From NCBI GenBank assembly GCA_035506275.1, contig DATJPT010000009.1:1-64000 (forward strand): a DNA stretch of 64,000 nt, given 5' to 3'. Of the stretch, positions 32,835 to 57,513 are shown one piece after another. A model generated the notes under the pieces. It worked only from the letters and a program-made list of their open reading frames with translations. It did not search any database and was not told the origin of the DNA. The first letter of the stretch is position 1. Every line of letters begins with the position of its first letter. The DNA is from Bacteroidota bacterium (GTDB lineage: Bacteria > Bacteroidota > Ignavibacteria > UBA10030 > UBA8401). The position numbers were made by a program, and so were the translations under genes.

Positions 32835-33289
32835 AATATTTCTGAGGTCCGTCGGTAAGCCGAATTCTGTCTTCCTCAGCCGGCACGAGGCCGGCGGAAG
32901 GAGGCAACCATTTATCTCGTATCGTTTTTACAAACGAACTGAAGCGACCTACCCATTCCGTTTCTGCGGGGCAGAGTTGAGTAGGCGTCTCTTCTTCCGG
33001 AAACGTTTGCACGTTCGGAAAACGGAATTTACTTGGTCTTTCTCCCGGTGGGGTTTGTCATGCCGGCGCTATCGCTAGCGCCGCGGTGCGCTCTTACATT
33101 AAGGCCTCGAGAGGCCCGCACCTTTTCACCCTTGCTCCCGACAGTGCGAACGCACCGTCGCGGGCGGTATATTTTCTGTGACACTTTCCGTAAGATTGCT
33201 CTTCCTGGATGTTATCCAGCACCGTGCCCGTCCCGGCGAGTCGTTGTGAGACCCGCCGCGATGGAGTTCGGACTTTCCTCCTAAATAAT
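32835..33289 (-). ncRNA. rnpB: RNase P RNA (bacterial type A)
   Basis: Read on the minus strand, the 5' end has AGGAGGAAAGTCCGAACTCC (CR-I) and the 3' part ends with AGACAGAATTCGGCTTA (CR-V, ACAGAAnnnGGCTTA consensus). Between them are GGATAACATCC (P-arm near CR-I), AAAGTGTCACAGAAAATA, AGGGTGAAAAGG (CR-II/III), CCCACCGGGAGAAAGACCAA (P15 region), GGGTAGGTCG and AGATAAATGGTTGCC (CR-IV). The ends can pair as P1 (TATTT and GAGG with CCTC and AAATA). It cuts 5' leaders from tRNA precursors. It lies between rnhA and recJ on the same strand. Ends are accurate to about 10 bases. Confidence 0.95.
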
Positions 33290-33419
33290 GTGCAGCAGTA
33301 TTTAAGCGATTGCCTGACGTACGCTCAGCATCAATTGCAAGAATGTTGAATGAACGAGTCAGCACGTGATATAGATGAATGAATTAAATTCTGTGGAACC
33401 TGCGACCGGGCGCCGTTCG

Positions 33420-33848
33420 TCAGCCGGCATGCTCGTCGATACTTTCGTTTGCCAATGCGTCTGCTTCTTTGTTCTTCTCTCTCGGCACATGATTGATGGA
33501 AAATTCAAACGACGACTTGCTGATGATCTTTTGCACCTCGTCGAAGAGTTTCTTCAGGGTTTTATCCTTCACCTTGTATTCGCCGTTGATCTGACGGACC
33601 ATCAATTCGCTGTCGGAATGAATCACCAGTTTGCTGCACGATGTTCCATTGCCGTTGCCGAACAGCCCATTCACCCTCAGCAGGCATTCGATCAGGGCCG
33701 TGTACTCGGCAACATTGTTGGTCACCTTCCCGAGATACTTTTTCTCTTCCGCCAGCACATTTCCGGATTCATCTTTCAGCACGACGCCGATTCCTCCATG
33801 CCCAGGATTTCCCCGCGCCGCTCCGTCCGTGAATCCGTAAACGGTCAT
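33420..33848 (-). CDS. Ribonuclease HI-like protein
   Basis: A 142-residue RNase HI fold starting at ATG 33848, which overlaps the stop of the zinc-ribbon gene (ATGA). Catalytic residues are Asp in GFTDGAARGNPG, Glu in NNVAEYTALIECL, Asp in HSDSELMVRQ and the final Asp in KNKEADALANESID. It removes RNA from RNA-DNA hybrids. The form matches the small 'reverse-transcriptase-like' RNase H group without the basic handle of E. coli RnhA. A longer frame back to 33911 is rejected. Confidence 0.92.
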   Translation of the reverse strand: MTVYGFTDGAARGNPGHGGIGVVLKDESGNVLAEEKKYLGKVTNNVAEYTALIECLLRVNGLFGNGNGTSCSKLVIHSDSELMVRQINGEYKVKDKTLKKLFDEVQKIISKSSFEFSINHVPREKNKEADALANESIDEHAG

Positions 33849-34576
33849 AACACCTTTTCGCTCGCCTGCGCGAGTTCCGCCGAAATAATGATCCTGCCGC
33901 AATGCTCGCACGTGAACATTCTACTTTGAGTGCGAAGTTCGAGCAGGCGCTGGGGGGGAATTTTATTGTGGCAGCCTCCGCACGAATTGCGCCGGACCGG
34001 GACGACGGCTTGGCCGTGGCGTCCCTTTCTGATGCGGTCGTAGCGGGAGAGCGTATCCGCTTCCAGCCGGACGACGATCTTCTCGCGCTGGTGTTTCAGC
34101 TTCAATTCTTCATCTTCGTTTGCCTTCGACACTTCGGCAAGCTCTGCTTCCTTCTCGTTCAGCTGGACAGTCAGCTCCTCGAGCTGCTTCGTCAAGCCTT
34201 CAATCTCTGTCTTGGCGCTTGCCATCGCGTTTTCGAGCGTCTCGAACTGCTTCTGCAGGTTTTTTATCGATTCGTTTGAAAAGTCTATTTCCTTCGTCAA
34301 CGCATCGTACTCCTTGTTGCTCCGCACCTCGTACTGCTGCGCTTTATATTTTTCCAGTTTCTCCTTCAACTCGAGAATTTCGACATCGGCCTTGTCGCGT
34401 CCCATGACCGAGGCTGTGACGATTTCCTGCTTTTCTTTGATCTGTCCTTTGAGTTTATCAGCCTCCCCCTGAAGCTTTCTCACAGCTTCCGGTAGATCTC
34501 CTTTCATTTCCTCCAAGTCGTCGAGCGAACTATCGACAATCTGCAGCCTGTACAGCAGTTTTAATGTTTCGTCCAA
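33845..34576 (-). CDS. Coiled-coil protein with C4 zinc ribbon (CdsZ-like)
   Basis: A 243-residue protein. Residues about 15-180 form a long coiled coil rich in Glu, Lys and Leu. The C-terminus is a C4 zinc ribbon, CGGCHNKIPPQ followed by FTCEHCGRII. The family is widespread and is usually found beside the Nif3-like gene and an RNase H gene, as here; Chlamydia and Helicobacter members have been studied but a unified role is not settled. It is 27 bp downstream of the Nif3-like gene and coupled to rnhA by ATGA. Confidence 0.9.
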   Translation of the reverse strand: MDETLKLLYRLQIVDSSLDDLEEMKGDLPEAVRKLQGEADKLKGQIKEKQEIVTASVMGRDKADVEILELKEKLEKYKAQQYEVRSNKEYDALTKEIDFSNESIKNLQKQFETLENAMASAKTEIEGLTKQLEELTVQLNEKEAELAEVSKANEDEELKLKHQREKIVVRLEADTLSRYDRIRKGRHGQAVVPVRRNSCGGCHNKIPPQRLLELRTQSRMFTCEHCGRIIISAELAQASEKVL

Positions 34577-34603: not shown

Positions 34604-35710
34604 CTAATAGTATGTTACTGGGTTTGTATTTTCCTTCGTGATGAAAACCTTTGCTTCCGATTTTTCGCGGGTAATGATCTCTTTTATTCGTTCAGCAAGC
34701 ACGGGGAGGACGTGGCGTTCCGTTTCAAAATGCCCCGCGTCGATGAGGAAAATGTCCTTCTCCGCATCCTGAAATCCATGATATTTGATATCCGCCGTGA
34801 TATAGGCATCCGCACGCTGCCGGATTGCTTCGGAGACAAGCTCACCTCCTGCGCCTCCGCACACTGCAACATGTCTGACCGGCCTTGCCGTCCTTCCGGT
34901 ATAGCGCAGAACCTTCGTGCCGAATGATCTCTTGATCAGGGACAAGAATTTTTCCGGCGGCACGGGTTTCGTAAACTCTCCGATCGCGCCAAGGCCGAAT
35001 TGCTCGCTTCTGTTCTGAAGGGGAGATACATCATAAGCAACCTCTTCATAAGGATGCTCTCGAAACATTGCGGCGAGCGCGCCCCCCAGCTTCCACGTTT
35101 CCACGGGCATTTCCAATTTCACTTCCGGAGTTTTTTCGAGGACTCCCTTCGAGCCGATGAACGGTGTTGCTCCCTCTTTCGGTTTGAACGTCCCGATCCC
35201 TTCAGTCCGGAAACTGCATTCCTCGTAGTGTGTAAACCTGCCTCCTCCGGCGCCGTGCATCGCCTTTGCGACTTTCTCAAGATGGCTCGCCGGCACGAAG
35301 ACCGATACCTTTACCAGGGTATCGGGGAGGTGCGAGAGCATGCGAACGTTCCGGAGTCCAAGCAGAGATGCCATGACGAAACTCACACCGCCGTTGACAT
35401 GATCGAGATTGGTGTGGGCGGCGTAAAGATTGATGTTGCGTTCCGCCATGAAAAGGGCAATTGCGCCTGCCCTGGAATCGTCTGTCAAAGATCGCAGCGG
35501 GCGAAAAAGCAGCGGATGATGCGTGACGACCAGATTCGCTCTGCGCGTCATCGCTTCTTTTGCAACGTCAAGCGTCGCGTCGAGCGAGAGAAGTATGTTG
35601 CGTATCTCCGTTGTGGCCCGGCCAACCTGAATTCCGCAATTATCTCCCTTCCATGCTGATGCCGGCGGAATCCATTCCTCAAGCGCCTGCTGAAATTTTC
35701 CTAGTGTCAC
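34604..35710 (-). CDS. Nif3-like dinuclear metal-centre protein (YqfO type, with inserted domain)
   Basis: A 368-residue protein starting at GTG 35710; this gives the normal YqfO length and a canonical N-terminus (KFQQALEEWIPPASAWKGDN). Metal ligands are seen in LVVTHHPLLF (His pair), YAAHTNLDH and IDAGHFETE. The middle part (about 125-235) is the PII-like inserted domain (VSVFVPASHLEKVAKAMHG). Members are hexameric, with suggested GTP cyclohydrolase or phosphatase activity but no firm role. A longer frame runs back through a terminator and is rejected. An attenuator-like hairpin lies 13 bp upstream. Confidence 0.9.
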   Translation of the reverse strand: MTLGKFQQALEEWIPPASAWKGDNCGIQVGRATTEIRNILLSLDATLDVAKEAMTRRANLVVTHHPLLFRPLRSLTDDSRAGAIALFMAERNINLYAAHTNLDHVNGGVSFVMASLLGLRNVRMLSHLPDTLVKVSVFVPASHLEKVAKAMHGAGGGRFTHYEECSFRTEGIGTFKPKEGATPFIGSKGVLEKTPEVKLEMPVETWKLGGALAAMFREHPYEEVAYDVSPLQNRSEQFGLGAIGEFTKPVPPEKFLSLIKRSFGTKVLRYTGRTARPVRHVAVCGGAGGELVSEAIRQRADAYITADIKYHGFQDAEKDIFLIDAGHFETERHVLPVLAERIKEIITREKSEAKVFITKENTNPVTYY

Positions 35711-35723
35711 AAACCCTGATAGA

Positions 35724-35751
35724 AATAAAAAATCCCGTTGGTTGGACGGGA
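35724..35751 (-). terminator. Rho-independent terminator of the small-peptide unit, just before the Nif3-like gene
   Basis: On the minus strand TCCCGT (35751-35746), loop CCAACCA, ACGGGA (35738-35733), then six T (35732-35727) and ATTT. It stands 13 bp after the small ORF stop and 14 bp before GTG 35710. It could be a true terminator or an attenuator for the downstream operon. Confidence 0.75.
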
Positions 35752-35763
35752 GTTGTGAGCGTT

Positions 35764-35856
35764 CTAAATCTGAATTTTGATCTTCAAAAACTTGGTGAAA
35801 TGAACCTCGCCAAGTCGTGAAAATTTTTCTTTGATTCTTTTCATTCGCTTCATCAT
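35764..35856 (-). CDS. Candidate 30-residue basic peptide in its own transcription unit
   Basis: ATG 35856 (or the adjacent ATG 35853) opens a 30-codon frame to TAG 35766-35764: MMKRMKRIKEKFSRLG then EVHFTKFLKIKIQI. It has 10 Lys or Arg in 30 and few acidic residues. No ribosome site is seen, but a TTGCAT-17-TACTTT promoter places the transcript start about 5 bases upstream, so translation would be leaderless. A terminator follows 13 bp after the stop. It may be a microprotein, a leader peptide of an attenuator controlling the Nif3-like operon, or a chance frame in a small RNA. Confidence 0.4.
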   Translation of the reverse strand: MMKRMKRIKEKFSRLGEVHFTKFLKIKIQI

Positions 35857-35867
35857 AGAACCAAAGT

Positions 35868-35896
35868 AAAGTACAATTTTTTGCGGAAAGATGCAA
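35868..35896 (-). promoter_or_regulatory. Promoter of the small-peptide transcription unit
   Basis: On the minus strand TTGCAT (35896-35891), 17 bp, TACTTT (35873-35868), the same pattern as the other promoters here. The resulting RNA up to the terminator would be about 135-140 nt. Confidence 0.6.
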
Positions 35897-54074: not shown

Positions 54075-54103
54075 TTGACAATAGCATCGTGAATTGCTAT
54101 ATT
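54075..54103 (+). promoter_or_regulatory. groESL promoter
   Basis: TTGACA (54075-54080), a 17-bp spacer, TATATT (54098-54103). It is the best promoter in the window. Confidence 0.88.
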
Positions 54104-54128
54104 AGCACTCATTGAACGTGAGTGCTAA
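54102..54128 (+). promoter_or_regulatory. CIRCE element (HrcA operator)
   Basis: TTAGCACTC (54102-54110), nine bases, GAGTGCTAA (54120-54128) is a perfect CIRCE inverted repeat. It overlaps the end of the -10 box and the start site, so HrcA binding would block groESL transcription until heat shock. hrcA itself is not in the window. Confidence 0.97.
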
Positions 54129-54200
54129 TTATTTTTTATACCATAAGTTATTTCAATTAAATAGGTTACATCGTATTAACTTAACGTTAAGGAGACTTGT

Positions 54201-56169: not shown

Positions 56170-56196
56170 CCACCGTTGCCGTAGAAGGAAGAAGGG

Positions 56197-56233
56197 ATCC
56201 CCGAACGCTCGTTTGCGTTCGGGGATTTTTATT
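56197..56233 (+). terminator. Rho-independent terminator of groESL
   Basis: A perfect 12-bp stem, ATCCCCGAACGC (56197-56208) with GCGTTCGGGGAT (56215-56226), loop TCGTTT, followed by TTTTATTT. Confidence 0.95.
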
Positions 56234-56304: not shown

Positions 56305-57513
56305 ATGTCAAAGGCCGACGAATTAACGAAAAGAATCTCATCGATTCAGGCTGCGCTGCACGCATACAAGCTTGAAGGATGGCTGCTCTATAATTTCCGA
56401 CAGTCCAACGTATTCGCTTCGAAATTGTTGGAACTGCCGGCACATCTCACGCAAATGAGGCGATACTTCTATTTTATCCCGGCGCAAGGAACGCCGCACA
56501 AGCTTGTTCACGGCATTGAACAATACAACCTGGACCATCTCCCCGGCGGCAAAACCGTCTATGTCAGCTGGCAATCGCTCCAGGACGGGCTTAAGGCGAC
56601 CCTTAAAGGGGTGAACTCAGTTGCGATGGAATATTCTCCGAATAATGCGATTCCGTACGTCTCGAAAGTTGACGGCGGTACAGTCGAATTAATCCGGTCA
56701 TTCGGCGTCAATGTCGTCTCCTCGGCGGATATCGTTCAATTTTTCGAAGCACGGTGGACCGAGGAACAGCGGGCGGATCAATTTGAGACCTCGAAGGTTC
56801 TGAGGAAGACCGTCGATGTCGCTTTTGGGTTTATCGGCGAAAGGCTTCGGGCAGGACAGAGGGTGACGGAATACGATGTTCAGCAAACAATGGCAAATTA
56901 TTTCAAGGAAAACGGGCTTGTGATCGACGATGCCCCGAATTGTTCCGTCAATGCGAACGCGGCAAATCCTCACTATGAACCGACGAAAGAAATTTTTTCA
57001 GAGATCAAGAAGGGGGATCGCATCCTGATCGATCTGTGGGCAAAGAAGAACAAAGCCGAGAGCGTCTATTCCGATATCACCTGGGTTGCGTTTGCCGGTG
57101 AGGAGATCCCGGCGAAGTATCAGAAGGTTTTTGAGGTCGTGAAAGGGGCGCGCGATACCGCGGTCGAGTATTTAAAGTCGGAATTCTCCAGCGGACGCAA
57201 AGTACGCGGCTGCGATGTGGACGATATTACCCGAAAGTACATCAGTGATAAAGGGTACGGCGAATTTTTTATCCACCGAACGGGGCATAATATCGGCACC
57301 GAAGTCCACGGAAACGGCGCCAACATCGATAATTTAGAGACCCATGACCAGCGCGAAATTATTCCGGAAACATGTTTTTCTATCGAACCCGGTATCTATC
57401 TTCCGGGCGAATTCGGCGTCCGGCTGGAGATCGACGTGTATGTCAGCAAGGAGAGAAAGATCGAAATTCCGGGAGGACCGATTCAACAAGAAATCGTGAA
57501 GATCAAGTGTTAG
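56305..57513 (+). CDS. M24-family Xaa-Pro aminopeptidase-like metallopeptidase
   Basis: A 402-residue protein with an AAAGGAGG site upstream. After an N-terminal creatinase-type domain (1-150) comes the pita-bread domain with metal ligands in RILIDLWAKKN (Asp), YSDITWVAF (Asp), FIHRTGHNIGTEVHG (His), SIEPGIYLPG (Glu) and the last Glu in VRLEIDVYVS. It should remove N-terminal residues next to proline in the cytoplasm. The M28 peptidase gene overlaps its end. Confidence 0.9.
   Translation: MSKADELTKRISSIQAALHAYKLEGWLLYNFRQSNVFASKLLELPAHLTQMRRYFYFIPAQGTPHKLVHGIEQYNLDHLPGGKTVYVSWQSLQDGLKATLKGVNSVAMEYSPNNAIPYVSKVDGGTVELIRSFGVNVVSSADIVQFFEARWTEEQRADQFETSKVLRKTVDVAFGFIGERLRAGQRVTEYDVQQTMANYFKENGLVIDDAPNCSVNANAANPHYEPTKEIFSEIKKGDRILIDLWAKKNKAESVYSDITWVAFAGEEIPAKYQKVFEVVKGARDTAVEYLKSEFSSGRKVRGCDVDDITRKYISDKGYGEFFIHRTGHNIGTEVHGNGANIDNLETHDQREIIPETCFSIEPGIYLPGEFGVRLEIDVYVSKERKIEIPGGPIQQEIVKIKC

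What the first reader, a model, noticed from the sequence alone, without database searches (positions are those of the whole stretch)
35724..35896. Autonomous micro-transcription unit encoding a leaderless 30-residue basic peptide, or an attenuator
On the minus strand a TTGCAT-17-TACTTT promoter, a 30-codon frame whose ATG lies about 5 bases from the predicted start site, and an intrinsic terminator fit into about 170 bp. The peptide starts MMKRMKRIKEKFSRLG and is strongly cationic. The terminator stands only 14 bp before the GTG of the Nif3-like operon, so the same elements could be a leader-peptide attenuator for that operon.
Basis: partly seen in the sequence, partly recalled or inferred. 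Interest (0 to 1): 0.62.

Follow-up and report, generated by a model that had tools for sequence, protein, structure and literature searches.

The report
Translated leader attenuator before nif3 operon
Across a whole group of poorly known bacteria (Ignavibacteria), the gene nif3, and often the RNase P RNA gene behind it, is preceded by a tiny translated gene and a transcription stop signal, an arrangement that looks like a switch letting the operon be expressed only when ribosomes keep up with transcription.

Summary
The promoter, 30-codon basic frame and terminator exist as described. Taken alone they are no better than chance. Comparison makes them real. In the window's order, 82 of 85 nif3 loci carry a terminator within 95 nt upstream of nif3. 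So do 33 of 33 loci in three further lineages (f7, f14, f10). Only 6 of 81 other loci do, and at least 3 of those are tRNA-gene terminators. Three unrelated hairpin sequences occupy the same position. A short ATG frame (10-58 codons) precedes the hairpin in 102 of 112 loci (33% in shuffles). It is basic and under purifying selection in its own frame only (synonymous z +4.1, similarity z +6.1). Its stop codon usually lies 0-20 nt before the hairpin, or the frame runs into or through it. No second promoter was found before nif3 (0 of 115). I found no antiterminator, no leader structure and no run of one amino acid. Best explanation: a ribosome-mediated transcription attenuator of the pyrE/pyrBI kind, in which a ribosome at the leader's end masks the terminator and lets the nif3 operon be transcribed. 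In the window's order that operon leads into rnpB (83 of 83 linked). The stimulus is unknown and nothing was tested experimentally.

The parts
35868..35896 (-). sigma-70-like promoter TTGCAT-17-TACTTT
   Evidence: TTGNNN-17-TANNNT found within 75 nt upstream of the leader ATG in 91 of 103 relatives, 3.6% of shuffles
35764..35856 (-). leader ORF, 30 codons, basic peptide MMKRMKRIKEKFSRLGEVHFTKFLKIKIQI; true start could be Met1, Met2 or Met5 (alignment with the congener G001 begins at Met5)
35733..35751 (-). intrinsic terminator hairpin, 12 nt after the leader stop codon
35723..35732 (-). T-rich tail of the terminator (TTTTTTATTT)
34604..35710 (-). nif3-like gene (DUF34/NIF3, long form), GTG start, the gene behind the terminator
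   Evidence: PF01784 E=1e-73; TIGR00486 above cut-off
33845..34576 (-). coiled-coil plus C4 zinc-ribbon protein (CdsZ/CT398-like), second gene of the operon
   Evidence: PF02591; NF047363 below its cut-off
33420..33911 (-). RNase HI-like gene
   Evidence: PF00075, PF13456
32840..33326 (-). rnpB, RNase P RNA class A, probably reached by readthrough of the same operon
   Evidence: RF00010 E=2.2e-68; downstream of nif3 on the same strand in 83 of 83 genomes of the order with both on one contig

Best explanation
A ribosome-mediated transcription attenuator for the nif3 operon. Shown by comparison: one promoter; a short ATG frame under selection for a basic peptide; a terminator directly after or within that frame; and nif3 close behind with no recognisable promoter of its own, throughout the sampled Ignavibacteria lineages that carry the long form of nif3. 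Inferred: a free leader transcript folds the terminator hairpin and transcription stops at about 140 nt. When a ribosome translates the leader closely behind RNA polymerase and reaches its end, its footprint covers the 5' arm of the hairpin, so polymerase reads on into nif3, the zinc-ribbon gene, RNase HI and, where linked, rnpB. The operon would thus be tied to translation capacity. The conserved basic peptide would tune how fast or how long the ribosome dwells near the stop codon.
For: Terminator within 95 nt of nif3 in 82/85 (order) and 33/33 (f7, f14, f10) loci against 6/81 elsewhere, at least 3 of the 6 being terminators of tRNA genes. Three unrelated hairpin sequences at the same place: GTCCCG in the order, TGCACT in f7/f14, GTGTTCC in f10. 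No nif3-proximal promoter in 115 loci, against a promoter before the leader frame in 91/103. Leader frame in 102/112 loci, 33% in shuffles; net charge +0.18 per residue against +0.08 in shuffled frames. Substitutions favour synonymous and conservative changes in the leader frame only: synonymous z +4.1 and similarity z +6.1 in frame, nothing of the kind in the other two. In promoter-anchored loci, a first frame of 14 or more codons exists in 86/89 (41% in shuffles), with its stop 0-27 nt before the stem in 55% of them (20% in shuffled frames) and inside or beyond the stem in 40%. Precedent in E. coli: a terminator a few bp after a stop codon is almost completely repressed by the translating ribosome, and repression is lost beyond about 27 nt (PMC4824070); the ribosome covers up to 12 nt after the stop codon (PMC4833913).
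Against: No transcript, ribosome or reporter data. PMC4824070 also reports that terminators within the first 100 bp of a coding region are repressed little, because ribosome and polymerase are not yet coupled; known leader attenuators solve this with pause sites, and I found no excess of U-runs in the leaders (longest run 3.66 against 3.50 in shuffles). For the window's own pair with G001 the codon test alone is not significant (P=0.18). The direction of control and the stimulus are not shown.
Confidence: 0.68

Rival explanations
1. A stand-alone gene for a small basic protein that acts in trans; its terminator merely ends its own transcript and nif3 is fed by leakage.
For: The frame is under purifying selection and peptides are recognisably conserved within groups of genera, for example MVKRRPYTDKNHIS and MSxRIRxKQLDxKFP.
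Against: Peptide sequence is replaced between families while position and terminator persist; no second copy in the own genome; no family match; stop codons crowd the hairpin, which a stand-alone gene does not need; nif3 would have no promoter.
Confidence: 0.12
2. A plain partial terminator that sets a fixed ratio between leader and operon transcripts, with translation of the leader as fixed protection rather than a regulated switch.
For: No sensor element or common amino acid found; same geometry everywhere.
Against: Conservation of peptide sequence beyond mere openness suggests more than a fixed leak.
Confidence: 0.1
3. A classical amino-acid attenuator (trp/his type) sensing lysine or arginine through alternative hairpins.
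For: Lys 15% and Arg 9.7% of leader residues.
Against: No segment complementary to the 5' half of the terminator beyond shuffles (z +0.29, meaning weaker than shuffles); no leader structure (z +0.13); stop codon beside the terminator instead of far upstream; no fixed run of one codon.
Confidence: 0.04
4. A structured RNA element (riboswitch or protein-bound leader) in which the open frame is incidental.
For: The window's own 138-nt leader folds somewhat better than shuffles (z -2.18; this stretch includes the terminator hairpin).
Against: No Rfam match; no excess structure across 103 leaders; the selection signal is codon-phased.
Confidence: 0.04

Closest known systems
pyrE (rph-pyrE) and pyrBI attenuators of Escherichia coli
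   Same: An upstream frame ends beside (pyrE, from memory) or runs through (pyrBI) an intrinsic terminator just before the structural gene, and a ribosome close to polymerase prevents the hairpin (pyrBI as described in PMC5021804 and PMC4824070).
   Different: No U-rich pause tract signal found here; the operon is not pyrimidine biosynthesis; the leader peptide is basic and conserved; different phylum.
ampC growth-rate attenuator of E. coli (from memory; no useful paper found)
   Same: Ribosome occupancy of a short leader would lower termination, tying expression to growth.
   Different: There the leader holds only a minimal start-stop pair, here a 10-58 codon conserved peptide.
trp/his leader-peptide attenuators
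   Same: Promoter, leader peptide, terminator, operon.
   Different: No run of regulatory codons, no alternative antiterminator, stop codon beside the terminator.

Membership tests
Ribosome-mediated transcription attenuator (general) | Single promoter, short leader frame, intrinsic terminator, then the operon without its own promoter | tested here: met
Ribosome-mediated transcription attenuator (general) | Leader frame is really coding | tested here: met
   codon-phased selection over 24 pairs
Ribosome-mediated transcription attenuator (general) | Translation of the leader changes termination | not testable with these tools
   needs a reporter or RNA-seq
pyrE/pyrBI-type attenuator | Stop codon close before the terminator, or frame reading through it | tested here: met
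   0-27 nt before the stem in 55% and overlapping or beyond in 40% of promoter-anchored leader frames
pyrE/pyrBI-type attenuator | U-rich UTP-sensitive pause tract in the leader | tested here: not met
   longest T-run 3.66 against 3.50 in shuffles
pyrE/pyrBI-type attenuator | Controls pyrimidine biosynthesis genes in response to UTP | tested here: not met
   operon is nif3, zinc-ribbon gene, rnhA, rnpB; response not testable
trp/his-type amino-acid attenuator | Run of codons for the regulating amino acid | tested here: not met
   no common run; Lys 15%, Arg 9.7% spread out
trp/his-type amino-acid attenuator | Alternative antiterminator hairpin | tested here: not met
   duplex z +0.29 over 103 leaders
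ampC-type growth-rate attenuator | Ribosome loading on the leader rises with growth rate and lowers termination | not testable with these tools
   experiment needed

The most novel reading that the evidence does not exclude
A lineage-wide attenuator whose conserved basic nascent peptide times the ribosome at the terminator, so that translation capacity sets transcription of an operon that includes the catalytic RNA of RNase P. A tRNA-processing ribozyme would thereby be placed under direct control of translation.
Probability: 0.25. Interest if true: 0.8.

Novelty: new variant of a known kind. Interest (0 to 1): 0.6.

Why it matters
Ribosome-mediated attenuation is mostly known for amino-acid, pyrimidine and antibiotic-resistance genes. 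Here it appears, conserved across deep lineages of Ignavibacteria, in front of nif3, a near-universal gene whose function is still disputed, and in many genomes upstream of rnpB. The regulation offers a handle on what NIF3 is for, and on whether RNase P RNA can be tied to translation through readthrough. The replacement of the hairpin sequence at a fixed position is also a clean case of selection on the position of a terminator rather than its sequence.

Tried and rejected
Antiterminator pairing and leader structure across 103 leaders: none beyond shuffles. U-run pause sites: none in excess. Rfam over the window: only rnpB. Families for the peptide in Pfam and NCBIfam: none. Second copy of the peptide in the genome: none. 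DNA search with the leader in 60 genomes: only the congener G001 matched at the right place; hits in G010 and G054 are unrelated sequence. A first codon-position test with freely gapped alignments was unreliable and was replaced by ungapped pairs with frame controls. rnpB as the real target: disfavoured, because family f7 keeps the leader and terminator although its rnpB lies elsewhere. Locus L008 was first read in the wrong orientation and corrected.

Full report
Judged alone they are weak: the scan found 1 terminator where shuffles give 1.9, and the promoter missed its threshold. The nif3 frame itself stays open upstream to 35962, but the leader ATG lies in another frame.

I therefore fetched nif3 loci from the 98 genomes of the order, from the wider class and phylum and from a named genome collection. 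Named records there (Ignavibacterium sp., Melioribacteraceae, Ignavibacteriaceae, uncultured Ignavibacteriae) place the window in the Ignavibacteria. Within 95 nt upstream of nif3 a terminator is found in 82 of 85 order loci and 33 of 33 loci of families f7, f14 and f10 and their named relatives, against 6 of 81 in other Bacteroidota and Firmicutes. With a stricter cut, shuffles gave 2 of 1180. Three of the outgroup cases are terminators of a tRNA gene next door (L199, L201, L202). Of the three order loci without one, L067 is interrupted by N, L055 keeps the hairpin without a T-tract, and L051 has a similar hairpin about 160 nt away. Twelve loci from further families of the class, which have the short NIF3 form, show no such arrangement by eye. 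The hairpin is GTCCCG-type in the order, TGCACT-type in f7 and f14 and GTGTTCC-type in f10, so position is kept while sequence is replaced.

The leader frame is real. An ATG frame ending near or in the terminator exists in 102 of 112 loci against 33% of shuffles, and its peptides are more basic than shuffled frames (+0.18 against +0.08 net charge per residue). Over 24 pairs of relatives, with ungapped alignments, substitutions are biased to synonymous (z +4.1) and conservative (z +6.1) changes in the leader frame, with no such bias in the two other frames. Peptides are recognisable within groups: MVKRRPYTDKNHIS, VKRTPYTDRKL, MSxRIRxKQLDxKFP, MINQM..ILTII.D.G.S..SAVSEQ, MRKFLIK..RRKTTELT. The window's own pair with its congener G001 (MKRIKEKFSRLGEVHFTKFLKI / MKRIRKKIFRLTENRFTKFLKI) fits the pattern but is not significant by itself (P=0.18).

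The geometry points to a mechanism. A TTG-17-TANNNT promoter lies before the leader ATG in 91 of 103 loci (3.6% in shuffles) and none was found between hairpin and nif3 in 115, so nif3 is most likely reached through the terminator. Among 89 promoter-anchored loci, 86 have a first frame of 14 or more codons (41% in shuffles); its stop lies 0-27 nt before the stem in 55% of them (20% in shuffled frames), and in or beyond the stem in 40%. Those distances are just where a terminating ribosome represses a terminator in E. coli: nearly complete at a few bp, lost beyond about 27 nt (PMC4824070); the footprint reaches 12 nt past the stop codon (PMC4833913). I found no antiterminator, no leader structure and no excess of U-runs. 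The best reading is an attenuator in which a ribosome at the leader's end masks the hairpin, as in pyrE/pyrBI, not an amino-acid attenuator with competing hairpins. A caveat from the same paper is that terminators within the first 100 bp of a frame are normally repressed little, because coupling is not yet established; the default here may therefore be termination, with readthrough needing fast initiation or polymerase pausing. These mechanistic steps are inferred.

What is controlled? nif3 is the common factor. In the order, rnpB lies 773-1493 nt behind nif3 on the same strand in 83 of 83 genomes with both on one contig, sometimes only about 20 nt after the preceding gene (L017, L026), so readthrough probably feeds RNase P RNA too. 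The linkage also occurs in f14, f10 and several Bacteroidota without the attenuator, while f7 has the attenuator without the linkage. The attenuator thus follows nif3, not rnpB. Searches of the paper library found nothing on leader peptides or attenuation in Ignavibacteria, and the DUF34 survey does not mention rnpB or discuss attenuation in its text; the library is incomplete, so this is weak evidence of novelty.

Noticed in passing
window 32840-33326 (-): rnpB sits at the end of the nif3 - zinc ribbon - rnhA cluster in every genome of the order where both are on one contig (83/83), and also near nif3 in several Bacteroidota outside the class.
   Followed up: partly
window 54101-54129 (+): Inverted repeat TTAGCACTC-N9-GAGTGCTAA, resembling a CIRCE element (HrcA site, from memory), followed by T-rich sequence.
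   Followed up: no
window 56196-56227 (+): Very strong terminator hairpin (GATCCCCGAACGC..GCGTTCGGGGATT) about 78 nt before a 402-codon frame starting at 56305; could be an ordinary end-of-gene terminator or a second attenuator.
   Followed up: no
L003, L004, L009, L010, L012, L014, L018 upstream of rnpB: A conserved stretch TTTTAATTCATCATCT about 50-70 nt before the matched rnpB start in the window's family; may be an rnpB promoter or a 5' extension of the RNA.
   Followed up: no
L055: The GTGTCCCGCC..GGCGGGACAC hairpin is kept but its T-tract is lost, a possible natural loss of termination.
   Followed up: no
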